From: Cymbomonas tetramitiformis
Taxonomy: Eukaryota; Chlorophyta; Pyramimonadophyceae; Pyramimonadales; Pyramimonadaceae
Direction: 5' to 3'
NCBI GenBank assembly: GCA_001247695.2
Contig: LGRX02033501.1
Coordinates: 1 to 64,000, forward strand
DNA length: 64,000 nucleotides
Shown here one piece after another: positions 1 to 23,435 of the stretch; the stretch's first letter is position 1; every line of letters begins with the position of its first letter. The notes under the pieces were generated by a model. It was given only the letters and a program-made list of their open reading frames with translations, was not told where the DNA came from and searched no databases. A program made the translations under genes and the position numbers.

Positions 1-229
1 AAATCCCTCACAACACCCCACTCTCCACCACAGCAGAGATACACCGCCATTTCAGCACCCAGCAATACCCCAACGCCCCGCCAGCCCTTACATTGCCGCC
101 CCTCGTTCATAATCGCGACAACTACACCTCAGCAAGGAAGGATCAATTCCCGCTCCTGACACATCATTTAAGTGCAGGGTATATAAACAGATGATTGACA
201 TGTGATATTGTAAGTATATATTACAAGAA
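1..229. other. 3' flank of a chromovirus remnant
   Basis: No ORF is supported here. Positions about 118-250 resemble 31188-31318, the stretch next to another copy of the same chromodomain. This therefore looks like the 3' untranslated part of the minus-strand chromovirus remnant to its right. The rest of that element, including any LTR, would lie beyond the left edge. Confidence 0.4.
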
Positions 230-833: not shown

Positions 834-1037
834 ACGCGTGCATATGATGGTACAATCTCGGAATCGAACGAACTTAACACTCGCGACTGATCATAAGCAT
901 CATTAATATCCACTGGTGCCGGTAACTGACCAAGCAATTCTCAACACAGCATAAGATCGCAGAGCTACAAAATTTTTAAAATTCTGATATCCTGTTATCG
1001 AACGCTGAACTCTTATATGCAAGCCCAGATTCCAACA
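826..1037 (-). repeat. 212-bp direct repeat, outer copy
   Basis: It matches 1565-1776 over the same 212-bp length without indels, with roughly ten substitutions. On the minus strand it runs from TGTTGG to GACA. It abuts the left terminal repeat directly and runs into the chromovirus remnant on its other side. Part of it can be read as chromovirus integrase-like sequence. Its origin is unclear: a duplicated older fragment or part of a longer LTR. Confidence 0.7.
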
Positions 1038-1562
1038 GAAAAAGTATGAAAACAGCAGTAAAATATATCCGTCAAAATTGATATTATACCACAAAATACG
1101 AATTATTGTGTGTACAAAAGCTGTGAGCAGAACCGTCTTAGCACTCTAGCACTGGCACGCGAACAGCCACCTAGTACTTGCGAAGGCAAAACAATAATGA
1201 GTCCACTGATCTGACCTTCGGTCAGAGGTCACTTATCTCTCAATGCTCTGTCACATTTCCCAAAACTGTAACGGGTTCTAGCCCTCGAATCTTCATCTGG
1301 CCAATGGAAAGTCATTATTCCATGCCAGCTTTAATACTGTTACCGTTTAACACATTCTGACTGACACGTCAGTGGCAAAGGAGTCACTGCCGTCGTCATC
1401 GTATCATTCCTCAGTAACCTGATATTGACAATATCTTCTCTGACAAGTCCGCATCTCACAGATGGTCATCTTCGCAAAGCCTGTCATACTGTCACCATTG
1501 TCATGCGTGTCACCAGCTGAACAAACCCGGCGCGGTACCATGAGAAGCCGGCGTTTGTTACA
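1038..1562 (-). repeat. 3' LTR of the large retrotransposon
   Basis: A direct repeat of 16575-17099 at a constant offset of 15537 bases, with one substitution noticed (1070 versus 16607). On the minus strand it begins TGTAACAAACG, a usual TG start. Its other end, TACTTTTTC, lacks the usual CA. It is flanked on both sides by copies of the 212-bp repeat. Confidence 0.85.
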
Positions 1563-1564
1563 GC

Positions 1565-1776
1565 TGTCGCAAACGCGTGCATATGATGGTACAATCTCGG
1601 AATCGAACGAACTTAACACTCGCGACTGGTCATAAGCATCATTAATATTCACTGGTGCCGGTGACTGTTCGAGCAATTCTCAACACAGCATAAGATCGCA
1701 GAGCTACAAAAATTTTAAAATTCTGATACCCTGTTATCGAACGCTGAACTCTTACATGCAAGCCCAGATTCCAACA
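1565..1776 (-). repeat. 212-bp direct repeat, inner copy
   Basis: The second copy of 826-1037, lying between the 3' LTR and the end of the methyltransferase ORF. Its minus-strand start, TGTTGG, is preceded directly by the purine-rich AGATGGGGGA. That arrangement usually marks the border between polypurine tract and 3' LTR. The true 3' LTR may therefore begin here, although the right-hand LTR has no matching segment. Confidence 0.7.
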
Positions 1777-1787
1777 TCCCCCATCTG
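1777..1787 (-). promoter_or_regulatory. Polypurine-tract-like sequence
   Basis: The minus strand reads AGATGGGGGA immediately before TGTTGG. A purine run next to a TG is where second-strand DNA synthesis is primed in LTR elements. It sits about 30 bases past the end of the methyltransferase ORF, as expected for a 3' end. The assignment rests on position and composition only. Confidence 0.4.
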
Positions 1788-1813
1788 TAGCTGCTGCGTG
1801 CAGTAGCACAGAC

Positions 1814-2833
1814 TCAAATGTGGGCTTGCTCAGCATACTGGGTCGTATCACCATCTGCCATGAACTTGCCCAAACTGAAAGTGAACATACCAATGCCCTC
1901 ACCTTCTCCGCCTTGTAACATTCTGGCTCTGACCAGCGGATTCTTGAACACCAAGACCCACATACACCTGCGGCCAATAGGTCCATGTTCCAGATGCCCA
2001 ATCACATGCAAGCGTCCTGTCTGACTCAATCGTCTGAAGTACGCAGCCCTGCTCTCGGTCATGTCTGTCAAGTAATAAGATGGAACGTGGACACATGCCA
2101 CCACACGACTGGCCATTACTGCCAACGGAAACGCGATATCCAGCGCTGCGAACCAAGGCGAAGTCACCACTGCGTCACAGACACCATACTTCTCCTTCCA
2201 TATACGATAGTTACCTGGCTGAAGTGCGTCATGCGCCTCAGACCAGCCCAACTGAGAGTTCCAGTCATTGTTCATGAATCTCAACTGCGGCCATTGCTCC
2301 ACCATGACCTCACTGATGACCCCAGTGCCTGCCCATGGGTCCCACACGCCATCGACGGACTTCCAGTCCACCTCTGTCGCCAAACGCCTCACCTCAGAGG
2401 GCACTGTGATGACCAGTTCAAGCCCCCACTGCAGCGCGCTAGCTTCTCTCACCTGAGCCTTAGTCATGTGTCTCAGCTCTCCTCGTCTTTCAACTTCTTC
2501 TTCAGCCAACGCAGGCACAAGAGGTGCATCCCTCAGATGCCTTGCCAAGGCCTTCTGTTCCCGATATTTCTTGCTCAGCACCGTGCGATGCCCCTCATTC
2601 CAATGCCCTGGCATGAAGATCTGCACAGCCTCAGAGAGCTTGTCCTGCCTTCCCCAATCAATCTGATCTGGCATGCCCAAGAACATGTCCTCCTCTTTCA
2701 ACAGCATCTCTCTCGATGAAATGGCATGCCAAGGCTGGAACTTGTCTCCCTTCACCACCCGACGAGAACCCACGTCTGCTGGCAACAGGCGCATCTCCGC
2801 CGACAGCTTCTCATTCAATTGCTGCTCCTTCAT
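1814..2833 (-). CDS. SAM-dependent amino-methyltransferase-like protein of the retrotransposon
   Basis: A 339-aa ORF counted from the ATG at 2833. Residues 165-171 read DPWAGTG, a motif I (SAM-binding) signature. Residues 224-228 read TSPWF, which resembles the (D/N/S)PP(Y/F/W) motif IV of N6-adenine or N4-cytosine methyltransferases. An acidic NNDW lies between them, where motif II is expected. The order I then IV, about 60 residues apart, fits a compact amino-methyltransferase fold without a target-recognition insert between them. The ORF is in the same frame as pol and separated from its end only by the UAG at 2864-2866 plus ten codons. It may be made by readthrough, or may once have been fused. 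Substrate (DNA, RNA or protein) is not determined; the second proline of motif IV is replaced by tryptophan. Confidence 0.65.
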   Translation of the reverse strand: MKEQQLNEKLSAEMRLLPADVGSRRVVKGDKFQPWHAISSREMLLKEEDMFLGMPDQIDWGRQDKLSEAVQIFMPGHWNEGHRTVLSKKYREQKALARHLRDAPLVPALAEEEVERRGELRHMTKAQVREASALQWGLELVITVPSEVRRLATEVDWKSVDGVWDPWAGTGVISEVMVEQWPQLRFMNNDWNSQLGWSEAHDALQPGNYRIWKEKYGVCDAVVTSPWFAALDIAFPLAVMASRVVACVHVPSYYLTDMTESRAAYFRRLSQTGRLHVIGHLEHGPIGRRCMWVLVFKNPLVRARMLQGGEGEGIGMFTFSLGKFMADGDTTQYAEQAHI

Positions 2834-2863
2834 GCCCAATTTGTCCTCTAGGGCACCAGAGCT

Positions 2864-5800
2864 CTAGTCTTTCTGGGTCTGCACCTCGGCATTGGCGGCT
2901 TGCCTCCCCGTGCCTGAGCACATGGGGCATAGCCACTCACCTTCTGGTACTCCATCCAGTGCTGGGGTCAAACACCACAAGTGATACCCCTTGTTGCACG
3001 TGTCACACAACAGCATCTCTGCCTCCCCATCGGTCTTCCTGCAAACTTCACATGCTAGGTGCTTACTGGGAACGGCTGCACTGCAGTCATACTGATCCTT
3101 CACCTGTAGGTGACATGGCGCGATGCTCTGCACGGTGCTCTTCTCTCTTAACTTGGTGGCGTCCTCAAGCACCACCACACCATCTCGCTGTATCTTGACC
3201 AGCTTCAGGATGGCGGATTTGGTCGCGACTTCCATGCCGCTGCGGGGCTTCTGCCTGATATAGACGAAATCGCCCACCTTGAACTGGTGTGGACTAGGCT
3301 CGTAGCCCCCACCCCTTCTCCTTTCGTAATGTAATGTGTCACGATGCTGCGCAACCTCCAGGCTGCAACCAGCGTGTACCATCAGTCGCCTCACCACCTG
3401 TGCTCTCTGGAGGAGGTCCTTGACTCTGGCATCCTTCTCATCTTCGACCTCCACAGCAAAATCTATGCTGGGTGCCCGTTTCAAATCAGGCGGCACTACT
3501 GCCTCTTGGGCGAACAACATGGTGAACGGCGCTACCCCCGTGGACTCCTGGCGTGCTGCATTATAGCTCAGCACCAGTGGCCAGAGCTGCTCATCCCACT
3601 CATAATCGAGACCCTTCTCCAAGGCAAGCTTCTTAAAGCAGAACTTCATAGTGCGTACCACTCGCTCGGTCAGCCCATTGCCTTCTGGTGAGTCTGGCGA
3701 GGTGACTCGCCGGTCAATCAGGCAATCTCTGCACAACTGCTTGAACTCGCCTTCAAACTCCTTACCTCCATCCACCAAGCATTCTGCTGGCGCACCAAAC
3801 ACAGCCAGGACATGACTGCGAAATGCCGCTGCGATGGTGCTCGCCTCCTTGTCGGGAATGGGCACGCAGACTATGAACCTGGTGTAGTGCTCGGTCATGA
3901 TGAGCACTCGGTTGTTGCCAGACTTGGTCTCTCTCCTCGAGGGCCATGCCAGATCCAGCGACCAACGATACATGAACGACACGATCTCAAGGGGGGACAA
4001 ACATGCCTCCTCTCTCGCATAATGAGTCTTCACACGCTGACAGGTCTCACACTGCGTGACCACAGCCTCCACGTCTTTCTTCAAGTCGGCCCACCAATGG
4101 CGCTGCCACAAAAGATGCTGCGTCCGCCTTATGCCCCAATGTCCCGTTCTGGAGTGGTATTCCTTAACCAACGCGAGACGGTCAGCAGGCTTAGGTATTC
4201 TCACCTCCTTGCCCGACATAGTGACCATGTAGATCTCGTCCGTGGCCTCGTCCCATCGATGTCGTGCTGCTCGCCTCCTTACTCGACGAACTTCCTCTTC
4301 GGGCAGCCTCACTCTACCATTGGACTTCAACCATCTGAGGCACCATGCATCATCGTGTACATCTCGATGCTTGTCACGATCTGCCTGCTGCTCGGCCACG
4401 CTGGCCATCAGGTCCTCGAACCTGGTGGTACATGTCAACCTGGGGAGCCTCATCTCTGACTCTCTGGTAGGCGGACTCCAGGCAGGCACATCCACGTGCG
4501 CTGCTGGGATCGCGCCCTCCTTCACGAAGTGGTTCTCATGCCTCTGACGATACTGCGCCATGGTGTAAAGCTGCCACTCGTTCTTCTTCTTCTTCTTGGT
4601 TCCAGCCTTCTGTCGCTGGGCTCCAATTCCTTCTGCGCCTTTCTGCCCTTGCGAGCACATTATCCGCAGCTTCTCCTCCCAGTCGCGATGGGTCATAGTC
4701 TTCGCCACCTGCTGGGTGTATGCGTTCGAATTCTCAACCCATTCCGCCAGCAAAGCTTCCCTCTGCTGAAGGTCCGACCTCTCGTGGTCTGCCCGGTTGT
4801 TGTCTACAGCGATGGGCTGTCCTGGGGAATTCTCCGCCTCTGGGGATTCCTTGCTGTGAGGAAGCCCCTTCCTGCTTGCTTCTGCGACTGCCATCAGCAG
4901 TTCCATTGCTCTGCGATCCATGGCCAGGCCCAGAATGCTCGCCAATTCTACGTCACTTAGGCCGTCGGCCATGCGTAGCTCACTTGCGCTGTAGCCCATG
5001 GCTCGCGTCTTCTCTTCGAGGTTAACTTCTCGAGATTCTTCCTCGGCGTCTTCGCCGTCCTGGTTGCGCACCACGGTGCCCATCCTCGCTCTTCTGAACG
5101 CTCTTGACCCTTGCGTCGCCATGATGGTGGGTAATGCCCTCAATGGTTCTCCCACCACGTTCACCACGTAGTGAGGCGCGCGGTCTGTCCTTATCACTGG
5201 CCTGGGATGCCAGCCCTTGCATATAATTGACGATACAATTCGTCCTTCTGGTCTCACCACCTTGCTCATGACGGAGCGAAACTGGTGGCTCTGGAACAAG
5301 TTGCTCCAATACGCCCGCAACCGATGTGCGTAGGCGCCTGCTTGTGCTGCATCAAAGGATACTGGTCTACCAATGACGCTGGCAATGTACGGGAACACCT
5401 CGTCCCTGATCTTGGTTCCAGGTCTGTGCGACAACGGAGAAACATTTTCCAGGATATAACCTGGAGGCCTCTGCCGCTGCAGCTGCTGGAGTGTGGACAG
5501 AAGCCTGACCACTTCATAAAATAATTTGCTGTGCCTGCCATCCAGGCCTGTGAGTGTTCCAGCAGGGGAGAGATCCTGACATGGGAACCCACATACCATG
5601 ACCCACTGGCGTCCTTGAAGAGCTCCTGCTCGTATGAAGTCGGCGCTGGTGGTCTCGCGCAGGTCTTGGGGTAAAGCCCCAAGCTCTATTGCATGGGGCG
5701 AGATGAGGTCAGGGTATCGTCTCAGCAATGCCGCACACCTGGCTCTGGCAACCGTCTGACTGCTCGGGGATATGTCCTGATACAGGTAGCGATCCACCTT

Positions 5801-7660
5801 CATCCCACTGCGGAGCAACATTTCCAGCCCAGCACATAGGCCTCCACATGGTTCGTAGCACACCACGCCTTCCTGCCGAGCTTGCGAGAAGAATCGGCTG
5901 CTCAGCACCCTGGTGTCGACCTTCTCGGGCTTCAGGATGCGCTCACCTTCAAAGTACTCATTGCTGTACACAGCAGGGCTTCCCTCGCCATGCGTGCCTC
6001 GCGTTCTTGGCCTAACCAGGCTCAGCGCCTTCCAAGCTGCTCTGGCTAGCCTCCCAGAGTCGGTCACCAGCTCGGGCAAGTCGGTGTCGAACATGTCCCC
6101 ATGATTGCATTCTAATTCCTCGTGGTAGTGCAAATCGAACAGACGATGCACTGGTCCTGTACCCAGCTGCTCCATGGCAGCCATCCTGCAGTAGTTGGCA
6201 ACCTGCACCTCTGGCGTGGCCTCTTCCCCTGGGGAAGCATCCCCAGCCAACATAAGGCACAAGTGGTCACAGAAGTCCTTCGTGTGAACTTCCCCCACGC
6301 CTGCGTGAAACGCAGTCACCTTCTCCCTCTCATGCCTTGCTCCAGTCTCATCTGTCGTGGACGGCAGTGGGTAGCGAGACGGCACGTCAGCGTTGCTGTT
6401 CTTAGCTCCTGGACGGTACTGCACCGTGAAGTCGAACTCCTGCAAGCTGATTGCCCAGCGTAGATGTTGCCCTTGGAGATCGGCCTTCTCCATCAGGGTG
6501 GTGAGCGGTGAGTGGTCGGTCACCAAGGTGAAGTGGACTCCATGCAAGTACTGCCTCAACGTGCGCACTGCCCATACCACTGCGAGCATCTCACCTTTGA
6601 AGCTGGCGTACTGTCTCTCCGTTTTACTCAGAGATCGGCTGATTGCCATACAAATGTACTCCTTCCCGTCATCGTCCTTCTGGCCCAGCACTGCGCCAAT
6701 GCCATAGGTGCTCCAGTCAGTGTACAATATGAGAGGTCTGTCGTAATCGATGGGCCTCAGGCACCTCCCAGAACAGAGGGCATCCTTAAGTTCTTGGAGT
6801 GCTTGATCTTGCTGCTTCCCCCAGGCTGCCTTGATGTCAGTGACCTCCTTCTTGAGCAAGTCGTTGAGAGGGCGGGCCATCTCAGAGTAGTTTGGCCCCC
6901 CTGGCTCACCCACCAGGCCCTTGTAGTAGTTCATCATACCCAAGATCGAGCGGAGCCCAGTCTTGTCCTGAGGGCTTGGAAGCTCTTGTATGGCCTTGCA
7001 TTTGGCTTCTTGCGCGCCAATGGAGTTGTGGCCAATACGATAGCCCAGAAAGTCCACCGTGGCTGCGCCAAAAGTGCTCTTGCCTGCATGCAAACGGATG
7101 CCAGCATCCCCCAAGGTGCGAAGTACATCCTCAACGTCCTTCAAATGCTGCTCAGGCGTGGAATCCGTATAGACCACTACGTCATCGACGTACGCCACCG
7201 TGCAATGCTGCAAGTGCCGTAACTCGTAGTCCATGATTCTTACGAACGCAGAAGTAGCTCCAGCTGCACCAAAAGGCATCGAGGTGTATTGGTACAGCTG
7301 ATTCTTCCACCAAAACGCCGTCTTGCTCCTGTCCTCTTCTGTAGCCATGGGGATCTGGTGGAAAGCTTTGGTGGCATCCAGAGTGGTCTTGAACTTGGCT
7401 TTGGCCACCTTCTGGTAGAGCTCCTCTGGTCGGTGCGGCAGCGTGTTGTCTTTGAGGGAGTGCCGATTGACACCCCTGAGGTCCACGCAGAACCTCGTCT
7501 GAGTCCACAGGCCAGTCTCGTGATCCTTCTTGCCAGCTACGACCACGTTGCTCGCATGCCTGCAATGCTTGGCTGCTGGCTCTATGAAACCATACTCCAA
7601 AAGTTCCTTGCAATGGATATCGATGATCTCCTGCTCGCCCGGACTGTATTTCCTAGGTCT
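2864..7660 (-). CDS. Pol: RT, RNase H, C5-DNA methyltransferase, integrase, PHD finger
   Basis: An open frame of about 1598 codons; residue numbers below count from the TTG at 7600. RT has YVDD at 137-140. RNase H follows, with a catalytic-type Asp at 295 (YTDWS). Residues about 575-945 are a C5-cytosine methyltransferase: motif I near 582 (YEPCGGLCAGLE), catalytic PCQ with Cys674, ENV at 718-720, HRLRAYWSN, and a C-terminal motif X-like helix. Spacing and the GFPCQDLSP context suggest a Dnmt3/DRM-like type, tentatively. Integrase follows: an HHCC zinc domain from about 1146, then Asp1216, Asp1277 and Glu1312. The tail carries a C4HC3 PHD finger (about 1516-1566). The 5' end has no ATG; it joins the preceding ORF at 7659-7664 by a +1 shift. 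All catalytic residues checked are intact, so it could be active. Confidence 0.93.
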   Translation of the reverse strand, partial: RPRKYSPGEQEIIDIHCKELLEYGFIEPAAKHCRHASNVVVAGKKDHETGLWTQTRFCVDLRGVNRHSLKDNTLPHRPEELYQKVAKAKFKTTLDATKAFHQIPMATEEDRSKTAFWWKNQLYQYTSMPFGAAGATSAFVRIMDYELRHLQHCTVAYVDDVVVYTDSTPEQHLKDVEDVLRTLGDAGIRLHAGKSTFGAATVDFLGYRIGHNSIGAQEAKCKAIQELPSPQDKTGLRSILGMMNYYKGLVGEPGGPNYSEMARPLNDLLKKEVTDIKAAWGKQQDQALQELKDALCSGRCLRPIDYDRPLILYTDWSTYGIGAVLGQKDDDGKEYICMAISRSLSKTERQYASFKGEMLAVVWAVRTLRQYLHGVHFTLVTDHSPLTTLMEKADLQGQHLRWAISLQEFDFTVQYRPGAKNSNADVPSRYPLPSTTDETGARHEREKVTAFHAGVGEVHTKDFCDHLCLMLAGDASPGEEATPEVQVANYCRMAAMEQLGTGPVHRLFDLHYHEELECNHGDMFDTDLPELVTDSGRLARAAWKALSLVRPRTRGTHGEGSPAVYSNEYFEGERILKPEKVDTRVLSSRFFSQARQEGVVCYEPCGGLCAGLEMLLRSGMKVDRYLYQDISPSSQTVARARCAALLRRYPDLISPHAIELGALPQDLRETTSADFIRAGALQGRQWVMVCGFPCQDLSPAGTLTGLDGRHSKLFYEVVRLLSTLQQLQRQRPPGYILENVSPLSHRPGTKIRDEVFPYIASVIGRPVSFDAAQAGAYAHRLRAYWSNLFQSHQFRSVMSKVVRPEGRIVSSIICKGWHPRPVIRTDRAPHYVVNVVGEPLRALPTIMATQGSRAFRRARMGTVVRNQDGEDAEEESREVNLEEKTRAMGYSASELRMADGLSDVELASILGLAMDRRAMELLMAVAEASRKGLPHSKESPEAENSPGQPIAVDNNRADHERSDLQQREALLAEWVENSNAYTQQVAKTMTHRDWEEKLRIMCSQGQKGAEGIGAQRQKAGTKKKKKNEWQLYTMAQYRQRHENHFVKEGAIPAAHVDVPAWSPPTRESEMRLPRLTCTTRFEDLMASVAEQQADRDKHRDVHDDAWCLRWLKSNGRVRLPEEEVRRVRRRAARHRWDEATDEIYMVTMSGKEVRIPKPADRLALVKEYHSRTGHWGIRRTQHLLWQRHWWADLKKDVEAVVTQCETCQRVKTHYAREEACLSPLEIVSFMYRWSLDLAWPSRRETKSGNNRVLIMTEHYTRFIVCVPIPDKEASTIAAAFRSHVLAVFGAPAECLVDGGKEFEGEFKQLCRDCLIDRRVTSPDSPEGNGLTERVVRTMKFCFKKLALEKGLDYEWDEQLWPLVLSYNAARQESTGVAPFTMLFAQEAVVPPDLKRAPSIDFAVEVEDEKDARVKDLLQRAQVVRRLMVHAGCSLEVAQHRDTLHYERRRGGGYEPSPHQFKVGDFVYIRQKPRSGMEVATKSAILKLVKIQRDGVVVLEDATKLREKSTVQSIAPCHLQVKDQYDCSAAVPSKHLACEVCRKTDGEAEMLLCDTCNKGYHLWCLTPALDGVPEGEWLCPMCSGTGRQAANAEVQTQKD

Positions 7661-9002: not shown

Positions 9003-12000
9003 CAGGGCTGCCCGCCCGCTGTGCCCGGGAAGCCCTGTTGAAAATGCGCTTGCCGTCGCTGCGCCTCACGCTGCTCGTCTGTGTAGTGCTGAAATGCTTG
9101 TGTAGCCTCACTCCAATTCGAGCCAGCTGGAGAAGGAGGACGCTGTGAGGCGTGGCTGGCCGGCATCCTGGACGTGCTCGGCGCGGGGACGACACGGGTA
9201 GCAGTCCCATGGCGGTCAACGGAAGGAGCAGGCGAATGCGCAGCACCACCTACGATCGGCTGATGCTCGAACGCCCCGGGGGAAGGCGGCCATTGACGAC
9301 GCGCAGGAGGGTCGCGAACCTCGTCCACATTCCTTGCCCAGCTCGTATCCACGTGCTCCGGCCTCACGGCCACACGAGCCTCACGGTTGGGCGGCCGTGG
9401 CGGGAGAAGGCGCGCCTCCAAGACGCGCAGGGCCGTCTGCAACCATGGCGCGGCCGATTCTGCGTAACCCCACTGCATGCATATGAACTTCCGGTCGTCC
9501 TGCACAAGGTAATCGTTCGTGAACTCCGTGCGCCAAGACAGACACCGCTGATCATCCATGAAGATGTAATGCACCGGCGTGGCGTTTGGATGCGCCATGC
9601 AGCGCAGCACGTGCGCCGACCCAAGCTCCACCCACTTGCACAGCGAGAACTCGACGTTCCTCGCATAACATGCGCCACGCGTGTGTCCTGAGCCAAGTTG
9701 CGATAGATCAGCATAGGCTGACATGATGGCCTCCAGCAGGTTGGCAGACGTCGTCTGTCCCCCAAGAGGGAGGCGCCAGCCCCGCTGCCCGCAAGTGATG
9801 GTCTTGTTGTGCTTCTTGACGACTGCGCTGGTGATGCCCGGATAGTCCCGCAGCCTGAGACCTCGCTCCTGGTTGCACACGCCAAGTTCATACACGATCC
9901 GCTGGTCCCGGCAGCGGTTCGCATGCGCCACGGCAAACTTCACCATGAAGACGGTGAGGTTGCGGCGTTCCCTCAAGTTGCTCACCTCCGCCACGGTCAG
10001 AAACCTGCCCACCGAACTGACGGATGAGGTGGCCATCTGCACGGCATCCCAATCCGACCCTGCCGGAGATGGAGGCGCCCTTGTAGGGGACTGAGACAGC
10101 TGACGCGCCCGTGGCGGGCTCGGAGGCGTAGACGGCGCGCCTCCCGAGGAACATGGTCGGGCATCACGCGGGACCCGGATTGAGTCGGCCCATGTGCCAT
10201 CGTTGCTCACAGCAGGCGATGCAGGGGGTGATTCCCCTTGAGAAGGACGAGCGGCAGCGGCGCAAACGAATTGAGATGACAACGCACGAGAACCGTCCAC
10301 GGGCTCACCGTCGCTGGATGCCGGCGATGGCGTAGGCCCACGCTTGAGGGCTTCGAAGGCGCGGACGCGTGACGAGCGTGGCGGCGAGTCACTAGCGGAC
10401 CTGGCACGAGACGGGCCGGCGGCAGCCTGAGATGGGCCTGCCACAGCCTGGGACGGTACTGCGGCAGCCCGAGATGGTCCCGCCACAGCGGCAGGGACAG
10501 GTGGCCGCGCAGGGGCACGCTTAGTGAGCCGTAAATGAGCCATGTCGTTGGACGGTGGCGGCCTGCGCTTTGCGTCTGCATAGAGCGCCTGGTGGCCCTG
10601 CTGCCTGGTGTCGACCGACTTGAGCATTTTCCGCATCTCCCCCAGGCGCACGTACTCCTGGGCGGCAGCATTCTCGGAGAACACCCTGCCAGGCCCCCCA
10701 AGACCATCCCCCACTGGGTAGTACTTGGTGCTGGAATCCGAGAAGACGAGCTCCAGAGGCGGTCTCTCGCCGCCATGTCGAGCATATTGACGGAGTATGC
10801 CATCAGAGAGAGCTTCAATGTCCACTGGGCAGAGGTATCTGAGCAACTGGTAAGTCCAGACGCCCGTACTCTCGTACCAGTGAGGGAGCTGGAGCTCGTC
10901 CAGCACTTCTTCACGGTTGGACACGCGCACATGAGACAACGTGCAATGCAGCAGATCGAGCTGCTGTGTGGCTGCGCTCGGCTGAACACAGAAGACGCGC
11001 TTCCTCAAATCCCACATAAGGGTGCCAGTGACTTCACCACTGGGGTACTTGAGCAACGACTGGAGCGTGCTCTGCAGCCTCTGGATTGGGTTGTAATCTA
11101 GCTGCGACCTGCTCTCTCGGGGCCTGGCGACGTCCTGCTTGCTGGCCGAGGACGGTACATACGTCGTGTAGTCGCCATCGAGCACCCAGCAGTTCTTCTG
11201 ATCGTCGTGCTTCAGCTTTTGGTCCACATGCAGCCAGTTCGGGGTCATCAGCTGGTGCATCGTCACCCACTTCTGTTCGAGGCAGCGGGCGAACTCCACG
11301 CAGACATGCTCACGAGAGGGTCTGCTCGGCATGTCCTGGGCGGGATTCTGGAGGATGCGGCAGAGGCGCGCGACGTGATGCCGGTCTAGATACAGCCTCT
11401 GGTCCGCCCAGTGATAATCGAGCGGGGTATCCAAAGACGGATGGTCCCCAACATTTACCCGAGAAGGACTCCGTGTCCAGTCGGTGACCCACTTAGCGTG
11501 CCCACCTTTCCAAGGGTCTGGCTCCTTGTAGAACTGCTCGAGCATGTGCTCCGACGCTGCCTGTACGGCGGGCGTCAGCGACGGCAGGCTGCTACGTCGG
11601 CCGCCTTCAAGAGAGCACGTCTGACGGCGACATTGCTCCTGAATCTCTGCTGGTGTGGCGACTCGATGTCGTGGGAGATCAGCAAGCAGTCTCGGCGAAG
11701 AAGGTTGTGACGTCAATGGTGACTCATCATGGTCATCGATGTGCTCACACTGGATCCCCGAAGCTGCGAATCTCTCCTCGCTCGTGCTCAGAGGCGTGTG
11801 CCTCAGCCAATCACACTCCAATCCTGCGAAAATCTCTGACTGCAGACACACCACCGGGTCCACGCGCCTGGGCAGGTCAGGACGTTTGGGTGGCGTCATG
11901 TCCACCAGCGGAAGCACCACCTGGGCGTTCATGCCCAGGATCGTTGGCGCATGTGATACGGCCACTCCACTCCCAAGCTTGATATCAATCATCAGGGAGT

Positions 12001-14812
12001 TCTTCAATGGCCCAGTACCTATCAGCAGGTCCCACGAGTTCTCAGCCTCGAAGGTCACGAAGGCATACAAGCGGTGAAGCGTCATGTGCGGCGTGCCCGC
12101 TGCCAGAATGACGTCCACGTAGCAATAATGGGTGAACTTTGTGGGACTGTTGTCACATCTGGTGACCTTGGCGCCGGTGGTGGCTTCGTAAATCGTGAGA
12201 CCCAGCCGCCTCACAACAGAGATCGAGATGATGTTACAGTTGGCGCCGGTGTCCATGAGGATTGCCCGGTACAGCATAAGCTCGCCACCGGATGACACCA
12301 GCGCAAGCCCCTCATATAGAGTGGCATTCTGCAACTTGCAGATGGGCTGAACTTGAGCCATCAATAGCACCTGCTCGTCGGTCAGATGCTGCGCCATCTT
12401 TGCCCTCAGTGCGTCGTAAGCGGAGGTCTTGATGGTACCAGCTCGCACATGCCCATGGTCACTGAAGTCAACCACCCCCAGATCGTCCACGTAGGCAGCA
12501 GCTGCACATTGAGCGGCGACGCTGTCGACCACCCCGCTGGGCATCTCGTCCAACGGCATCTCCTCGGTTGCACGATGTCCTGGACCGTCTGCTTCCCTTC
12601 TTGCTCCTTGCGTCGCTGCGGCGTGAGTGTCTTCCAACTCATGCTCATTGACCTCAGCGGGCTGTTCGGCTGCGTCATTCGGATCCTTGCCCAGAAGCTC
12701 CTCAAGTGCCACAAGATTCTCGATGTCCTTCGGGAGATCAATGGCGTTCTGGGATATCAGGATGGCAGCGATCTGCGAGCAGGCACGCACAGAGCTGCGA
12801 AGATTCGATGCCAGCAGGTGGACCTTCCTGCTGAGCACGTCGGGAGGGACGGCTCTAGGCACCTGAGCGGCCCTGTCGAACTCCTCCGGCGTCTTGACCT
12901 GGAAGCCCCGCATCTGCTGAGTGTTGCCCAAGGCGACAGCGGCGCTGGCCTGGAGGCTCGGTGCGTGATCGATGCCAACACCATGACCACCTCCCAATCC
13001 ACCCCCAGCAGGGCAGTCCTGCTCATCCTCCTCGTATTCTGCCTGTTGGGTGAAGTTGGAGTTGTACTCGGTATCCGCATCGCTGGCCTCTGATAGAGCC
13101 TGTGCATCGGCGATCTCGTCATCCTTTGGAGGTGACCCTGCCTGGAGGCCTGACAATTCTGCGGCGAGCTTCTCCTTAACCTCGGCACTGGCAGCCACTT
13201 GCTGCTGCTGCTGCTGCTGCTGTGGTTGCTTCTGCTTGGCCTCCGGGAGCTTAAGCCACTCCTTGGTGGTGATCCCCATCTTGTGCTTGTCAAAGCGGTG
13301 TGCGATGTTGTAGGCACGCATCTGGGCATTCTTAACCTCATCTGGCCACTTGGAGTTCTGCCTGTCCTTATGGAAGTTGGGCGGCACCCGGGAATCACGA
13401 CACCCCGTGTAGCAGCGATCTGGGGAGTGAGGCAGGCGCGTGAAGCACCAGTCACACTGAAACTTCTTCGAAGCATCGGGTGGTGGCACCTTGCTGTAAG
13501 AAGGTTTCTGACGTTCGGCATTATTCGCTTCCCTCACAGGCTTCTTGGCGTCGTCGCCACCATGCTGTGCCTGCTCCTTCTTCTTGGGGTCTCTGCGTCT
13601 GTCCCCAGTCCTGGAGGCAGAACCCGAGCGCCTCATGGCTGATACCAGCGCAGACAGGTCAAGCCCCATCTGCCTGGCCTCAAAGCAGGAGTACACGCAG
13701 TTGAGCCTGCGAACCAGCTCCTGCTGCAGCGTGAGGGCCCAAGCCTCTGCATCGTTCTTGAGCTTGTCCTGCACCTCCACAATCACCTCGAGGTCCTCCC
13801 AAGTAACCCTGTTGGGGGCAGGATGACTGACGCGCAGCTGCTCGGACACGCGATCTCGGTATTCTTTGATGCGCAAGCCCTTAATGCATTCCTCGATGTT
13901 CTGCCTGACGACGGAGTCCTCCACCCTCCTGCCGGTGTTGAGAGCTGCCTCCCTGCGACGACAGCTCTTCACGTAGGTGAGACCGTCCTGCTCGTTGGTC
14001 TGCGGCTTGGCGATCAAGAGATCTTCTTTCTCTTTGGTGCCCTTCATCAAGAATTTGGCTTCGAGCTCTGCAACGAACGCCCTCAAGGCCCAAGAGTAGT
14101 GAGAATCTTCAGTGCCATCTGGCCCCGTGAGACCCCTCGTGGAGGTTCCCTCGCCTGCCCACTCATCAGACGCCTCGCCATCCTCATCACCCTCCTCGAA
14201 CACCTTACAAACTGCCCAGGTTGTCCCTGGCGCCAGCTCATGAAAAGGAGGCTGAGCGCAACGCACAGATCCCTGGTAAGCATCTCTCATGGTAACGTCT
14301 TTCAGGACATGGCAAGCGTGTGAAGCCATGACGCCATTCTTCAGGTAGGCAGCACACCACCAGTCATAAGCGACTGAGGTGGCATGGTCATCCCCTGCTA
14401 GAAACGATGGTATGCTGTCCCACAATGATCTGTAGTCTGGTCTGGACCCAGCGAAGGCCTCCTTCTGCTGCTGACTGAGCGCATGGTAAGATGCTGACTT
14501 CATGTACCTACGCTTCCTGGCCTCAAAAGCCCGCTGGACTTTCGCCACCATGTCCACAAAACGCCTGATGAAGAGCGCTCTGTCCTCACTCTTACTACCG
14601 GTGTACTGGAGTCTGACGTCATCCTTGTCAAGTGAGTGGCTCTCCTTCTCATAGTGATCCATCTCGTCTACGTCGTCAAACGCAAAGAGAAACTGGTTTG
14701 CAGGCGCTGAGGCTACTACTGCTGCTGCGAGTGCTGCTGCTCCTAGCGCTGTTGCCGCTGGAGATGACGGTTCGGAGGGAGTATTTTCTGAGCCCGACCC
14801 CTCTGCGCTCAT
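9002..14812 (-). CDS. Gag-protease polyprotein with a long C-terminal extension
   Basis: A 1936-aa ORF; the ATG at 14812 is the first in frame after a stop near 14940. Residues about 40-450 are helical and charged, as in Ty3-type Gag. Residues about 453-490 contain a Cys/His cluster (CDWC, then spaced Cys and His), a nucleic-acid-binding zinc motif. A run of eight Gln follows at about 531-538 (CAG repeat). DTGAN at 854-858 with LLIGTGPL downstream is a retroviral-type aspartic protease. About 900 further residues follow: an unrecognised segment with charged helices, an Ala/Pro/Ser-rich linker near 1480-1620, and a second folded-looking domain before the end. Such a long tail after protease is unusual. 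Codons and length are intact throughout. Confidence 0.88.
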   Translation of the reverse strand: MSAEGSGSENTPSEPSSPAATALGAAALAAAVVASAPANQFLFAFDDVDEMDHYEKESHSLDKDDVRLQYTGSKSEDRALFIRRFVDMVAKVQRAFEARKRRYMKSASYHALSQQQKEAFAGSRPDYRSLWDSIPSFLAGDDHATSVAYDWWCAAYLKNGVMASHACHVLKDVTMRDAYQGSVRCAQPPFHELAPGTTWAVCKVFEEGDEDGEASDEWAGEGTSTRGLTGPDGTEDSHYSWALRAFVAELEAKFLMKGTKEKEDLLIAKPQTNEQDGLTYVKSCRRREAALNTGRRVEDSVVRQNIEECIKGLRIKEYRDRVSEQLRVSHPAPNRVTWEDLEVIVEVQDKLKNDAEAWALTLQQELVRRLNCVYSCFEARQMGLDLSALVSAMRRSGSASRTGDRRRDPKKKEQAQHGGDDAKKPVREANNAERQKPSYSKVPPPDASKKFQCDWCFTRLPHSPDRCYTGCRDSRVPPNFHKDRQNSKWPDEVKNAQMRAYNIAHRFDKHKMGITTKEWLKLPEAKQKQPQQQQQQQQVAASAEVKEKLAAELSGLQAGSPPKDDEIADAQALSEASDADTEYNSNFTQQAEYEEDEQDCPAGGGLGGGHGVGIDHAPSLQASAAVALGNTQQMRGFQVKTPEEFDRAAQVPRAVPPDVLSRKVHLLASNLRSSVRACSQIAAILISQNAIDLPKDIENLVALEELLGKDPNDAAEQPAEVNEHELEDTHAAATQGARREADGPGHRATEEMPLDEMPSGVVDSVAAQCAAAAYVDDLGVVDFSDHGHVRAGTIKTSAYDALRAKMAQHLTDEQVLLMAQVQPICKLQNATLYEGLALVSSGGELMLYRAILMDTGANCNIISISVVRRLGLTIYEATTGAKVTRCDNSPTKFTHYCYVDVILAAGTPHMTLHRLYAFVTFEAENSWDLLIGTGPLKNSLMIDIKLGSGVAVSHAPTILGMNAQVVLPLVDMTPPKRPDLPRRVDPVVCLQSEIFAGLECDWLRHTPLSTSEERFAASGIQCEHIDDHDESPLTSQPSSPRLLADLPRHRVATPAEIQEQCRRQTCSLEGGRRSSLPSLTPAVQAASEHMLEQFYKEPDPWKGGHAKWVTDWTRSPSRVNVGDHPSLDTPLDYHWADQRLYLDRHHVARLCRILQNPAQDMPSRPSREHVCVEFARCLEQKWVTMHQLMTPNWLHVDQKLKHDDQKNCWVLDGDYTTYVPSSASKQDVARPRESRSQLDYNPIQRLQSTLQSLLKYPSGEVTGTLMWDLRKRVFCVQPSAATQQLDLLHCTLSHVRVSNREEVLDELQLPHWYESTGVWTYQLLRYLCPVDIEALSDGILRQYARHGGERPPLELVFSDSSTKYYPVGDGLGGPGRVFSENAAAQEYVRLGEMRKMLKSVDTRQQGHQALYADAKRRPPPSNDMAHLRLTKRAPARPPVPAAVAGPSRAAAVPSQAVAGPSQAAAGPSRARSASDSPPRSSRVRAFEALKRGPTPSPASSDGEPVDGSRALSSQFVCAAAARPSQGESPPASPAVSNDGTWADSIRVPRDARPCSSGGAPSTPPSPPRARQLSQSPTRAPPSPAGSDWDAVQMATSSVSSVGRFLTVAEVSNLRERRNLTVFMVKFAVAHANRCRDQRIVYELGVCNQERGLRLRDYPGITSAVVKKHNKTITCGQRGWRLPLGGQTTSANLLEAIMSAYADLSQLGSGHTRGACYARNVEFSLCKWVELGSAHVLRCMAHPNATPVHYIFMDDQRCLSWRTEFTNDYLVQDDRKFICMQWGYAESAAPWLQTALRVLEARLLPPRPPNREARVAVRPEHVDTSWARNVDEVRDPPARRQWPPSPGAFEHQPIVGGAAHSPAPSVDRHGTATRVVPAPSTSRMPASHASQRPPSPAGSNWSEATQAFQHYTDEQREAQRRQAHFQQGFPGTAGGQP

Positions 14813-15026
14813 ATACTCCGTGTCAAGGTCCTGACTGGTCCGTCCTCGTGCCAGCCGTCGTGCCTCACGTTCTCTGGAATGGGCAGAGGCAGCGCTTGGC
14901 TCTGACTCTCCCTCCGTGGTGAAGTGCTGTGTTGATGCTCAGTCAACGGGACCAAGGGCGAGTCCCCCTCTCTCAGCGCAAAGCTCGTTCCCCAGTAGAC
15001 TGGAGTCTTGACTCAGACTGGCTCAG

Positions 15027-16463
15027 GCCAGTGCACTGAGTGCCCCTGGATTTGCCTTGCTGAACAAGTGAAAGAACGAAACGCGTGTGGGCAGCGAATG
15101 CCTAGAGGTCCAGCACTGCGCTTCAGCGCTCTGAATCAGCAGCAGATGTAGAGTATTCGTGCAAGGAAAATTAAAGCTGGGCCAGAGTGCTGAGCACTCC
15201 TGGATTAGCTGGGCCAGAGTTCATAAAGAGGACAGTGACAGTGAGGTCAACTCCTTAACACCAGGAAATAGCACTGATATGCAGCGGTGTGAGCTAGGCC
15301 AGTGTGCTGAGCACCCCTGGATTCACACCACCACTGCTAATCAAGAAAGCCATGGCTGGCATATAAGCTCACTCCCCAGTCCAGTCCAACAAACAAGTAC
15401 CAGGTCGCTGACAGAGTTGGAAGCTAAGCCAGTATGCTGAGCACTCTGGATTCGCAACACTACTGCTGATTCAGAAGGTGGCCCGTGATATGAGGGCCTC
15501 ACCGGTTGACCAACACTGTAGAAAGGATAGAAGAATTCTCCAACACATTGTGATAAGACAGCAGAAGGTTACTCCAGTAGTGAGCAGCACTCCAGGCTGG
15601 AAACGTAATTAACTCTAAATTCACCAGGTCACTGTGTCAAACCAGGGAATAAACCACTCAGTTGTCGCCTTCAGAGTTGATGCAGCTGCCAGTCCTCTAG
15701 CAAGCTCTTCCTCTGCTTCAGGCTTAGGCCAGTACACCAGGGGTGTCCCTGGATTAACCGTCAGACAAAGTGGAGCTGCCAAAGAAACCGTAAGTTGGAG
15801 TTCCAGACATAGAGCAGTGATTCACTGCTGATCCACTTCTTCACTGGTGAATAAAAGCAGATGTCGCCGCTAATTAGCTCACAGGCCAAGCACACCTGCC
15901 TTTCAGCTAAGCCAGTACACCAGGGGTGTCCCCGGATTCACTTCAGACAAGGTGGCCAGCTGGAGAGCCCACTGAAAGATAGTTCATCAAGGTGCACATC
16001 AGCTGTTGATCCACTCTTAGCCGGTAAGACAGGGCAGATGCCGCTGCTGATTAGCTCTCAGGTGAAACACACCTGCCTTTCAGTTAAGCCAGTGCACCAT
16101 GGGTGCCCCTGGATTCACTTCAAGCAAGGTGGTCAGCTGAAAGAACCACTGAGAGCTGCTCATCCAGGTGTACATTAACTGCTGATTGACTTTGTCGCTG
16201 CCGCCGCCCAAGCTCATGCAGTGCTGATTAGCTTAAAACTGAAGGACACCTGTCAGCAGCTAGGCCAGTGCACCAGGGGTGCCCCTGGATTCGCTGAAGA
16301 CAAAGGTGTTGAGCATATCACTGTGCAGAAGGAAACCGCTCATGTCTGGTGAATTCAAAGCTGATCCGTCGCCGCTGTTGCTGGAAGCTCTTCCAGTGCA
16401 AGTACCACCAAGCTCAGGGAAGAAAAAGGTTCCGCCAGTGCACCGTGGGTACCCCTGGAGTCG
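15027..16463 (-). repeat. Leader array of repeated hairpins
   Basis: Between the 5' LTR and gag, a 28-32-bp hairpin motif recurs at 15027, 15177, 15297, 15424, 15724, 15906, 16084, 16261 and 16432, with a decayed copy near 15570. Spacing is 120-180 bp. Outer arms are CCAG and CTGG. The inner stem differs between copies but stays self-complementary: GCACC with GGTGC in some, GTGCT with AGCAC in others, GCACT with AGTGC in the first. That covariation suggests an RNA structure. It could serve packaging, dimerisation or ribosome entry; none is shown. Confidence 0.75.
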
Positions 16464-16574
16464 CCTGACTTCCGAATCCGCTCTTTCAACTGCTGCTAAC
16501 TTCTCGCCAAAGGGCCTTCACTTCCGGATTAACACTGAAATAAAAAGCCGCTCCGCGCAGGACATTATTGTTTT

Positions 16575-17099
16575 GAAAAAGTATGAAAACAGCAGTAAAA
16601 TATATCCATCAAAATTGATATTATACCACAAAATACGAATTATTGTGTGTACAAAAGCTGTGAGCAGAACCGTCTTAGCACTCTAGCACTGGCACGCGAA
16701 CAGCCACCTAGTACTTGCGAAGGCAAAACAATAATGAGTCCACTGATCTGACCTTCGGTCAGAGGTCACTTATCTCTCAATGCTCTGTCACATTTCCCAA
16801 AACTGTAACGGGTTCTAGCCCTCGAATCTTCATCTGGCCAATGGAAAGTCATTATTCCATGCCAGCTTTAATACTGTTACCGTTTAACACATTCTGACTG
16901 ACACGTCAGTGGCAAAGGAGTCACTGCCGTCGTCATCGTATCATTCCTCAGTAACCTGATATTGACAATATCTTCTCTGACAAGTCCGCATCTCACAGAT
17001 GGTCATCTTCGCAAAGCCTGTCATACTGTCACCATTGTCATGCGTGTCACCAGCTGAACAAACCCGGCGCGGTACCATGAGAAGCCGGCGTTTGTTACA
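16575..17099 (-). repeat. 5' LTR of the large retrotransposon
   Basis: The partner of 1038-1562. For a minus-strand element it is the upstream LTR and should hold the promoter. I see no convincing TATA element. The inner border, where a primer-binding site should be, reads AAAACAATAATG on the minus strand and matches no standard tRNA 3' end that I recognise. Confidence 0.85.
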
Positions 17100-17834
17100 T
17101 GATAAAGGGATGACGCCCCGCAGTTCTAGGGATGCAGCCCGGACACACTGATGGTGTATGGCATTAATCGCGGGAGCCACCCGTTCGATATTCACGTAAT
17201 CAGCTCAGGGTCACATCGTGCCCGTATTGCTGTTATCTCTTCATACGGTTCTATGATCAAAAGATACTGCTTTGCAGTCTTAGTAGGGACGAAGGATGTC
17301 CAGCAGTTCTAGGGTTGCTGCCCCTCATCTCAACTTGAAATTTGTCATCTCAGGTACATAGAGAGAGTCCATGTGATGTACGTGGGTCACACGAATGCCG
17401 TCTTAAATTGACAGGCCTGTCTTCAACAAAAGAGTAAAACTCTTTCTTCTTGGTGTTACAACACCTTATGAACAATCATAGCATCAAATCAGAACACAGT
17501 TATCTGCATACTCAATGAAGGCAGTTCGTTCTGGCCTTTGACCAGCTGGAAGTTTCCCCTTAAAGTCATCTAAAATTCCTCAAGCATCTGTTCACGTGTC
17601 TGGGTGACTTCTTATTCTCCTTAGGACATCTGATGCAGAATTGGTGTCAATTGATGTCACAGCTACTTCCCCGTTCTATTTAATCCCTATAGGGGGAAAT
17701 CTGCGTACGAGGGGGTGTTACCTCTTCATCACGAACATCACTTCATCTTGGATGCGTGCTGCGGTTCGGGGACCACTTCGGTAGCCGCCAACATGTTGGG
17801 ATTGGGTTCCGTCGCTTTCGATAGGTAAGCATTC
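17100..17834. other. AT-rich non-coding stretch
   Basis: No coding region is supported. It holds two copies of a 20-bp motif found elsewhere in the window (17121-17140 and 17304-17324) and two short perfect palindromes near 17427-17455. It probably belongs to older repeats into which the large element inserted. Confidence 0.5.
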
Positions 17835-21245: not shown

Positions 21246-21265
21246 CATTACACGCTACCTCCAAT

Positions 21266-22278: not shown

Positions 22279-22300
22279 CCTGCAATATCATGGCCACGTT

Positions 22301-23413: not shown

Positions 23414-23435
23414 CCTGCAATATCGTGGCCACGTT

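What the first reader, a model, noticed from the sequence alone, without database searches (positions are those of the whole stretch)
1038..17099. Retrotransposon carrying a DNA methyltransferase, a second methyltransferase, a PHD reader and a membrane domain
The sequence shows a 16-kb element with near-identical LTRs and intact catalytic motifs for protease, RT, RNase H, integrase and a C5-methyltransferase. It also carries an amino-methyltransferase-like ORF, a PHD finger and a multipass membrane segment. C5-methyltransferase capture by Ty3-type elements is known from charophytes and dinoflagellates (de Mendoza and colleagues, 2018). The combination with a second methyltransferase, a histone-tail reader and a membrane module is, as far as I know, undescribed. 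A self-marking element that methylates its own copies and reads chromatin at target sites is an inference.
Basis: partly seen in the sequence, partly recalled or inferred. Interest (0 to 1): 0.93.

Follow-up and report, generated by a model that had tools for sequence, protein, structure and literature searches.

The report
Split-repeat retrotransposon with two methyltransferases
A 16-kb jumping gene, present in hundreds of copies in a green alga's genome, carries a cytosine DNA methyltransferase, a second (probably adenine) methyltransferase and a chromatin-reading finger, and its rearranged terminal repeats suggest that it is copied at one pair of ends but inserted at another.

Summary
It lies on the minus strand at 826-17099, in a genome that is almost certainly Cymbomonas tetramitiformis. 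Its ends are not simple LTRs but split direct repeats, A1-coding-B1-A2-B2, the layout of tyrosine-recombinase elements. Yet it has a DD35E integrase, TG...CA ends and 4-bp target duplications: in the window, in 8 of 14 fetched end pairs (1 mismatch, 2 head-to-tail, 3 without A1 in reach), and in one copy each of two diverged families. A 12-nt sequence right after A1 is complementary to one site inside A, suggesting Tf1-like self-priming; the matching two-sided change predicted for the diverged families was found in both. This copy breaks the pol frame twice; other copies read on at those places. Pol order: hydrophobic segment-RT-RNase H-Dnmt3-like methyltransferase-integrase-PHD-second methyltransferase. 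Pooled dN/dS is 0.115 and 0.04-0.11 for the methyltransferases, 0.149 for PHD, 0.38 for the hydrophobic segment. Related polyproteins occur in Haematococcus, Pleodorina, Monoraphidium (second enzyme partial) and metagenomes. Closest published relative: KnitGypsy-Dnmt3 of Klebsormidium. The second enzyme's substrate, the membrane role and self-marking are unproven.

The parts
822..825 (-). target-site duplication ATCA, copy at the 3' end of the element
   Evidence: same kind of 4-bp duplication in other copies
826..1037 (-). B2: second copy of the 212-bp repeat B; its end (...GCGACA) is the 3' end of the element
   Evidence: of 26 fetched 3' ends 23 have complete B1-A2-B2, L091 has it with a small deletion at A2/B2, L106 runs into N within B2, L099 has no B2
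1038..1562 (-). A2: second copy of the 525-bp repeat A
1563..1564 (-). GC dinucleotide between B1 (...ACA) and A2 (TGT...)
   Evidence: GC in 24 of 24 copies with complete B1-A2-B2; also in L169, L170, L171 of two diverged families
1565..1776 (-). B1: first copy of repeat B
1777..1785 (-). polypurine tract GATGGGGGA abutting B1
   Evidence: same in 24 of 24 copies; purine tracts also abut B1 in the diverged families; function inferred
1814..2839 (-). ORF4: second methyltransferase (core 1865-2467); separated from pol by an in-frame stop in this copy only
2864..7600 (-). ORF3: RT - RNase H - C5-methyltransferase - integrase - PHD
2918..3052 (-). PHD finger (ORF3 residues 1517-1561)
   Evidence: E 1.8e-11; dN/dS 0.149 over 21 sequences
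3686..4189 (-). integrase zinc-binding and catalytic core (ORF3 1138-1305), DD35E
   Evidence: dN/dS 0.016 over 20 sequences
4901..5878 (-). Dnmt3-like C5-methyltransferase (ORF3 575-900)
   Evidence: best PDB relative DNMT3A, E 2.7e-6; dN/dS 0.115 over 19 sequences
6434..6748 (-). RNase H-like domain (ORF3 285-389)
7034..7462 (-). reverse transcriptase, Pfam part (ORF3 47-189); N-terminal part lies in ORF2
7659..9002 (-). ORF2: hydrophobic N-terminal region (about residues 21-306) followed by the N-terminus of RT; start codon overlaps the ORF1 stop (TGATG)
   Evidence: overlap present in 17 of 17 copies that span it
9002..14812 (-). ORF1 (1936 aa): presumed Gag, weak aspartyl protease match at residues 851-880
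16563..16574 (-). presumed self-priming primer-binding site AAAACAATAATG directly after A1
   Evidence: of 14,787 internal 12-mers the only one whose reverse complement lies in A
16575..17099 (-). A1: first copy of repeat A; its start (TGTAAC) is the 5' end of the element
16725..16736 (-). CATTATTGTTTT (A positions 364-375), complement of the primer-binding site; presumed 5' end of the RNA
   Evidence: TSS position is inferred
17100..17103 (-). target-site duplication ATCA, copy at the 5' end of the element

Best explanation
This is one copy of a multi-copy Ty3-type retrotransposon of a green alga. SHOWN by sequence: the integrated form is A1-coding-B1-GC-A2-B2 with TG...CA ends, short inverted termini at the A start and B end, and 4-bp target duplications. 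The priming signals sit elsewhere: the polypurine tract abuts B1 and a 12-nt site complementary to part of A abuts A1. INFERRED mechanism: RNA starts in A at about position 364, folds back as in yeast Tf1 and primes on the site after A1; the polypurine tract primes the second strand. Reverse transcription thus makes an LTR of B-GC-A (740 bp with the extra A, itself TG...CA), i.e. a DNA BA-coding-BA. Its ends are joined (the A2-B2 junction ...TTTTTCA|TGTTGG...), and the DDE integrase acts not there but at the palindromic junction ...ACA-GC-TGT... inside the LTR, where its two recognition ends lie side by side; that gives A-coding-BA-B. So replication ends and integration ends are different. Translation: ORF1, then by the TGATG overlap a pol polyprotein of about 2,400 aa. 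INFERRED use of the extra domains: the Dnmt3-like and second (N6-adenine-type) methyltransferases, made in one polyprotein with RT and integrase, modify the element's own cDNA before or at insertion so that it resembles host DNA, and the PHD, in the place where chromoviruses carry a chromodomain, steers the complex to a histone H3 state.
For: Split repeats: 23 of 26 fetched 3' ends have complete B1-A2-B2 (plus L091 with a small deletion, L106 cut by N; L099 is head-to-tail); the 20-mer across A2|B2 occurs 326 times in the genome, reversed control 0. Target duplications: 8 of 14 end pairs, the window, one family-2 copy GCGT, one family-3 copy GCTT. Inverted termini: A start against B end 12/16, 12/16 and 11/16 in three families whose A and B are only 50-56% identical. 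Primer site: unique among 14,787 12-mers, identical in 9 of 9 other 5' ends tested; two-sided change predicted in writing then found in families 2 and 3, the predicted 20-mer 511 times genome-wide, control 0. B1 and B2 differ by a median of 1 site within 24 copies against about 9 between copies, so they are renewed together. Selection. Co-inheritance: distance-matrix correlation DNMT-RT 0.645 and DNMT-IN 0.609, against RT-IN 0.672.
Against: No RNA, cDNA, circle or methylation data. The circle step is read from integrated copies only. If a two-LTR circle were cut at either of its two B|A junctions, A-BA-coding-B copies should also occur; I saw none, but looked at few 5' ends. L089/L109 (same 3' flank as the window) has no matching duplication and 12 A1-A2 differences; L093/L113 and L099/L118 are head-to-tail. 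The window itself lacks the A between A2 and B2 (as does L089) and its B1/B2 differ at 9 sites, so this copy is not typical. The covariation in the primer site is one event shared by families 2 and 3. PBS, TSS and polypurine functions are inferred.
Confidence: 0.68

Rival explanations
1. Same architecture, but replication follows the DIRS/Ngaro-type scheme: a transcript spans A1 to B2 and the internal B1-A2 block templates the two missing ends of a circular DNA, without a B-GC-A LTR intermediate.
For: The A1-B1-A2-B2 order is the one described for PAT, Ngaro and VIPER elements (passages of PMC4157794 and PMC6681497).
Against: A polypurine tract abuts B1 and a self-priming site abuts A1, which define an LTR of the ordinary kind. 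Whole B repeats are renewed together within copies rather than only their outer ends.
Confidence: 0.22
2. An ordinary LTR element with LTR = A; the outer B (826-1037) is a neighbour or a preferred landing site, not part of the element.
Against: Target duplications match only if B2 is included; B2 is followed by different flanks in different copies; no purine tract abuts A2.
Confidence: 0.03
3. The second methyltransferase acts on RNA (the element's own transcript or rRNA-like target), not on DNA.
Against: Sequence profiles of relatives point to DNA methyltransferases (phrog_799 in 4 of 4 relatives tested, best 1.7e-6; Pfam MethyltransfD12 in 3 of 28, best 0.0037, below cut-off). Tyrosine-recombinase elements of the DIRS group carry a putative methyltransferase too (PMC4157794).
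Confidence: 0.3
4. The methyltransferases do not protect the element but restrain it or alter the host epigenome, for example by silencing its own copies.
For: The discussion of PMC5890265 (section 11, read) offers self-limitation as one option for Dnmt3 elements.
Against: Selection at element level for both enzymes fits a direct benefit to the element, but does not exclude this.
Confidence: 0.25

Closest known systems
KnitGypsy-Dnmt3 of Klebsormidium nitens (de Mendoza et al. 2018, PMC5890265; sections 6, 9, 11 read, plus passages)
   Same: Gypsy-type pol with a Dnmt3-class methyltransferase inside the polyprotein; Fig. 4 legend says its repeats have the DIRS structure but its domains are typical of Gypsy; Ka/Ks below 0.2 reported for its DNMT.
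   Different: The text I searched has no mention of a PHD, and adenine methyltransferases are mentioned only for DIRS elements. Target duplications, self-priming and a membrane segment do not appear in what I read. I had no K. nitens sequence to compare.
PAT / Ngaro / VIPER split-direct-repeat retrotransposons (PMC4157794, PMC6681497; passages)
   Same: A1-coding-B1-A2-B2 repeats; the DIRS group (with PAT) carries a putative methyltransferase.
   Different: They integrate by a tyrosine recombinase; this element has a DD35E integrase and 4-bp target duplications, and Pfam finds no tyrosine recombinase in its four ORFs.
SymbioDIRS-Dnmt3 and SymbioLINE-Dnmt (PMC5890265)
   Same: C5-methyltransferase captured by a retroelement; Dnmt3 class in SymbioDIRS.
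   Different: DIRS and LINE backbones, not RT-RNase H-IN with a DDE integrase.
Tf1 of fission yeast (self-priming; recalled, one search gave listings only)
   Same: Primer site next to the 5' LTR complementary to the presumed start of the same RNA.
   Different: Tf1 has ordinary LTRs whose ends are the integration ends (recalled).
Chromoviruses (chromodomain Ty3 elements; PMC10675990 passages mention them in Cymbomonas)
   Same: Histone-binding type module C-terminal to the integrase.
   Different: PHD instead of chromodomain; in 3 of 28 members scanned a Tudor match as well.

Membership tests
Ty3-type (Metaviridae-like) LTR retrotransposon | pol order RT - RNase H - integrase with Ty3-type RNase H and H2C2 integrase | tested here: met
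   (with a methyltransferase between RNase H and IN); no tree against Copia, Bel-Pao or chromovirus clades was made
Ty3-type (Metaviridae-like) LTR retrotransposon | short fixed target duplication from a DDE integrase | tested here: met
   (with the exceptions told there)
Ty3-type (Metaviridae-like) LTR retrotransposon | identical LTRs at both ends that are also the integration ends | tested here: not met
   ends are A1 start and B2 end
KnitGypsy-Dnmt3 kind | Dnmt3-class methyltransferase in a Gypsy pol | tested here: met
   best solved relative DNMT3A E 2.7e-6; no DNMT tree was made
KnitGypsy-Dnmt3 kind | DIRS-like split repeats with Gypsy domains | tested here: met
   the comparison is with the figure legend of PMC5890265
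KnitGypsy-Dnmt3 kind | common descent with the K. nitens element | not tested
   no K. nitens protein is named among the hits listed (120 of 187 listed)
DIRS / PAT / Ngaro (tyrosine-recombinase retrotransposons) | split direct repeats A1-B1-A2-B2 | tested here: met
DIRS / PAT / Ngaro (tyrosine-recombinase retrotransposons) | tyrosine recombinase instead of a DDE integrase | tested here: not met
   rve and H2C2, no phage-integrase family in the four ORFs; DD35E invariant
Active C5 DNA methyltransferase | catalytic Cys, ENV-type Glu-Asn, motif VIII arginines | tested here: met
   invariant in 16 sequences; the Pleodorina relative P0076 lacks the catalytic motif
N6-adenine methyltransferase | AdoMet Rossmann fold with (D/N/S)PP(Y/F/W) motif IV (recalled) | tested here: inconclusive
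   fold closest to M.TaqI and METTL5 (rows within 1 Z are tied); motif reads TSPWF in the alignments, not a standard PP motif
Self-priming LTR elements (Tf1 kind) | primer site complementary to the 5' end of the same RNA | tested here: inconclusive
   complementarity and covariation shown; RNA 5' end not known
Histone H3 reader PHD | PHD zinc ligands | tested here: met
   PF00628 E 1.8e-11; histone mark bound is not testable here

The most novel reading that the evidence does not exclude
A green-algal lineage of Ty3-type elements that unites two kinds of nucleic-acid methyltransferase and a chromatin reader in one polyprotein with RT and integrase, and that has uncoupled replication from integration: the LTR made by reverse transcription (B-GC-A) has the integrase sites in its middle, as a permanent copy of a circle junction, so that a DDE integrase inserts a circularly permuted DNA. 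It would be the DDE counterpart of the tyrosine-recombinase split-repeat elements, reached by convergence.
Probability: 0.55. Interest if true: 0.92.

Novelty: new variant of a known kind. Interest (0 to 1): 0.82.

Why it matters
Two things become testable. First, how an integrase element can carry split direct repeats: the sequences locate the integrase sites inside the LTR and make definite predictions for RNA start, unintegrated DNA and circle junctions; to my knowledge DDE elements with this layout are known in print only from one figure legend (PMC5890265). Second, why retroelements capture DNA methyltransferases: here the cytosine enzyme sits between RNase H and integrase, a second methyltransferase and a PHD follow the integrase, and all are kept by selection in a lineage that spans several green algae, so the question whether elements write host-like marks on their own cDNA can be asked with purified enzymes and with existing long reads. 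Passages of PMC12695648 report 6mA on active genes and 5mC in gene bodies of prasinophytes, so both marks would be meaningful to such a host.

Tried and rejected
Rejected: (a) Ordinary LTR pair at 1038/17099: no duplication there, and other copies place the end at B2. (b) Tandem or assembly artefact: the same B1-GC-A2-B2 block recurs with different flanks. (c) Separate genes for membrane protein and second methyltransferase: other copies are open at both junctions. In related families of the genome single open frames of 2,398-2,405 aa are listed for 12 of 36 matches. (d) Tyrosine recombinase: none found.

Led nowhere: first AlphaFold model of ORF4 with 11 close relatives, mean pLDDT 34.8, not used. 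IMG/VR scan with the pol alignment: 80 loci kept, all matching only within query residues 563-786, i.e. the C5-methyltransferase; I did not study them. IMG/VR scan with ORF4: no relative. Scan of GTDB genomes with P0163 (named as from a Minisyncoccia MAG, perhaps a misbinned contig): no relative. ORF4 itself has no Pfam or NCBIfam match and only an unknown PHROG at 0.2. Foldseek against PDB and BFVD gave generic methyltransferases. No tRNA-type primer site was seen by eye after A1; not searched systematically. ARAGORN found no tRNA in the window.

Results against or limiting my reading: L089/L109 without matching duplication and with 12 A1-A2 differences; two head-to-tail cases; 3 of 20 copies (C1143, C2047, C4878) with neither A1 nor the RT N-terminus at the expected distance. 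Lesions in other copies: a stop in the C5-methyltransferase of L136 and in the spacer of L139, two-base insertions in ORF4N of L139 and L140, a frame change inside the hydrophobic segment of L154. dN/dS values are pooled over non-independent pairs, codons with gaps or stops left out, no significance test. The hydrophobic segment has dN/dS 0.38 (0.45 among the main type) and two types 74% alike in otherwise near-identical copies, so its selection is weak. The second-methyltransferase domain was found in 83 of 163 proteins with the C5 domain (always after it); many of the rest are fragments, but Haematococcus P0046, P0048 and P0071 lack it in the scan. In the comparison of outer LTR ends the family-2 B start was one base out of register.

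Literature: nine searches showed no paper on chlorophyte Ty3 elements with both methyltransferases; two of them returned nothing at all. The library lacks most subscription papers and all held bioRxiv preprints, so this is no proof of absence.
Full report
WHAT AND WHERE. The element is on the minus strand. Repeats A (525 bp: 16575-17099 and 1038-1562, 524/525 identical) and B (212 bp: 1565-1776 and 826-1037, 203/212 identical) are ordered A1-coding-B1-GC-A2-B2. The element starts with TG at 17099 and ends with CA at 826 (16,274 bp). ATCA stands on both sides (17100-17103, 822-825), and the joined flanks read in one frame through the insertion point, with similarity by eye to the C-terminal part of a retroelement integrase. 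The genome is held as G000 (852 Mb, 25,745 contigs; the window is part of C23416).

CODING. ORF1 (9002-14812, 1936 aa) is presumed Gag with a weak protease match; ORF2 (7659-9002) has a hydrophobic region and the N-terminus of RT; ORF3 (2864-7600, 1578 aa) has RT, RNase H, C5-methyltransferase, integrase and PHD; ORF4 (1814-2839) is the second methyltransferase. The ORF1 stop and ORF2 start overlap as TGATG in 17 of 17 copies that span it. In this copy a frame break separates ORF2 from ORF3 and a stop separates PHD from ORF4. At these places the frame is open in 16 of 17 and 20 of 20 other copies; the one other broken copy, L149, belongs to the locus with the window's own 3' flank. In related families of the genome 12 of 36 listed matches have open frames of 2,398-2,405 aa. 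So the natural product is one pol polyprotein of about 2,400 aa.

COPIES AND ENDS. Forty of 3,081 first-look candidates were scored for a query of A2-GC-B1 end, and the 40 all match at 98-100%. I fetched 26 3' ends: 23 have complete B1-A2-B2; L091 has it with a small deletion at A2/B2; L106 runs into N inside B2; L099 continues from A into internal sequence. In the 24 complete cases (23 and the window) B1 and A2 are separated by GC in 24, the purine tract is the same in 24, and A2 and B2 are separated by A in 21, nothing in 2 (window and L089) and six bases in 1. Of 14 end pairs, 8 have an exact 4-bp duplication at the A1 start and B2 end, 1 (L089/L109) does not, 2 are head-to-tail and 3 have no A1 in the fetched stretch. 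The 20-mer across A2|B2 occurs 326 times genome-wide and 0 times reversed.

OTHER FAMILIES. Protein P0013 led to two further families. Their 3' ends (L169 and L170; L171) show the same B1-GC-A2-A-B2 block with a purine tract before B1, although A and B are only 50-56% identical to those of the window. The 5' ends of one copy each give duplications GCGT and GCTT. The A start and B end form short inverted termini: 12/16, 12/16 and 11/16 matches; the outer LTR ends do not (6/16, 3/16 with one base out of register, 5/16).

PRIMING. Of 14,787 internal 12-mers exactly one has its reverse complement in A: AAAACAATAATG, directly after A1, pairing with A positions 364-375. It is the same in 9 of 9 other 5' ends tested. 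Families 2 and 3 have CATTTTTGTTTT at the corresponding site in A, so I wrote down the prediction AAAACAAAAATG for their primer site; it is there in both. The 20-mer containing it occurs 511 times, reversed control 0. This is one covariation event, not two. Self-priming of Tf1 is recalled, not read here.

REPEAT RENEWAL. Within 24 copies B1 and B2 differ by a median of 1 site (range 0-13), between copies by about 9; A1 and A2 differ by 1-5 sites in nine copies and by 12 in L089/L109. So A and B are renewed at each round. The window (9 B differences) and L128 (13) are outliers, perhaps by template switching or recombination.

MECHANISM. Purine tract and primer site define a reverse-transcription LTR of B-GC-A (+A), 740 bp, TG...CA. 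The integration ends lie inside it at ACA-GC-TGT. A circle with two such LTRs, opened at a B|A junction, gives the observed A-coding-BA-B with the joined LTR ends at A2|B2. Shown: the repeat order, termini, duplications, complementarity. Inferred: RNA start, priming, circle, site of integrase action.

C5-METHYLTRANSFERASE. Best solved relative is DNMT3A (E 2.7e-6); catalytic residues are invariant in 16 sequences. Among relatives with a readable motif the residue before the catalytic Cys is often Glu (64 WECQDLS, 17 WPCQDLS, 10 FPCQDLS) where Pro is usual (recalled), and the Pleodorina relative lacks the motif.

SELECTION. Pooled pairwise dN/dS over the window and up to 20 copies: C5-methyltransferase 0.115 (19 sequences), spacer 0.149 (20), integrase 0.016 (20), integrase C-terminal part 0.138 (20), PHD 0.149 (21), ORF4 N-terminal part 0.111 (21), ORF4 core 0.042 (21); hydrophobic region 0.384 and RT N-terminus 0.141 (18 each).

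DISTRIBUTION. One search gave 77 proteins and one search gave 187 (120 listed). Of the 195 proteins held, 163 match the C5 profile, 115 the ORF4 profile, 83 both, and in 83 of 83 the ORF4 domain comes later. Named non-Cymbomonas hosts with both: Haematococcus lacustris (P0033), Pleodorina starrii (P0076), Monoraphidium neglectum (P0029, weak partial ORF4 match, E 2e-4). The C5 domain's distance matrix correlates with that of RT (0.645, n 104) and IN (0.609, n 135) about as well as RT with IN (0.672, n 102); the second methyltransferase less (0.41-0.54, n 54-68); the maxima of 300 permutations were 0.08-0.20. This favours long co-inheritance; near-identical copies are included, and no tree was made. 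A Kyte-Doolittle scan shows clustered hydrophobic peaks before RT in Cymbomonas relatives and in one metagenomic one, P0041.

LITERATURE. PMC5890265 (sections 6, 9, 11 read): KnitGypsy-Dnmt3 has a Dnmt3 in a Gypsy pol and, by its figure legend, DIRS-like repeats; dinoflagellate cases are DIRS and LINE. PMC4157794 and PMC6681497 (passages): A1-B1-A2-B2 repeats belong to tyrosine-recombinase elements. PMC10675990 (passages): LTR elements fill 15.3% of the Cymbomonas assembly; it has no occurrence of 'methyltransferase'. PMC12695648 and PMC12344493 (passages): 6mA and 5mC patterns and DNMT classes in algae. PMC6338049 and PMC9998398: passages only. All other papers: listings only.

VERDICT. A new variant of the Gypsy-Dnmt3 kind, with a second methyltransferase, a PHD and a DDE-integrated split-repeat form documented by duplications and priming signals. 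Structural statements are strong; the circle step and the use of the methyltransferases are hypotheses.

Noticed in passing
window 17100-17900 and 1-825, minus strand: The target of this insertion looks, by eye, like a decayed pol gene of another retroelement (integrase C-terminal region); the frame runs through the insertion point once the flanks are joined.
   Followed up: partly
L089 / L109 / L129 / L149 (contig C16382): A second contig has the window's 3' flank and pol frame break but a different 5' flank and 12 A1-A2 differences: an allele, a duplication or a chimeric assembly.
   Followed up: partly
L099 (C14048) and L113 (C23734): Head-to-tail arrangements: A2 followed by internal sequence, or B-GC directly before A1.
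   Followed up: no
window 8085-8942, minus strand; L152, L162: The hydrophobic region occurs in two types only 74% alike in copies otherwise near-identical, suggesting exchange between lineages.
   Followed up: partly
window 9002-12170, minus strand (ORF1 after the protease): About 1,000 residues between the protease match and the end of ORF1 have no Pfam match at E 0.1.
   Followed up: no
window 15717-16308: The long 5' leader holds diverged tandem units of about 177 bp.
   Followed up: no
window 21003-24221: About 1.1-kb units repeated head to tail at 97% identity.
   Followed up: no
window 24719-25907, minus strand: Two ORFs that look, by eye, like pieces of a CACTA-type transposase.
   Followed up: no
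window 42599-43738, plus strand: 379-aa ORF of repeated Cys-rich units (HGGGKRCQADGCTKSA...).
   Followed up: no
P0163: A polyprotein of this family is filed in NCBI under a Minisyncoccia bacterium MAG; probably a misbinned algal contig.
   Followed up: partly
P0032 and others in alignment A4: 3 of 28 members scanned match a PTM/DIR17-like Tudor domain and 3 of 28 a G-patch domain.
   Followed up: no
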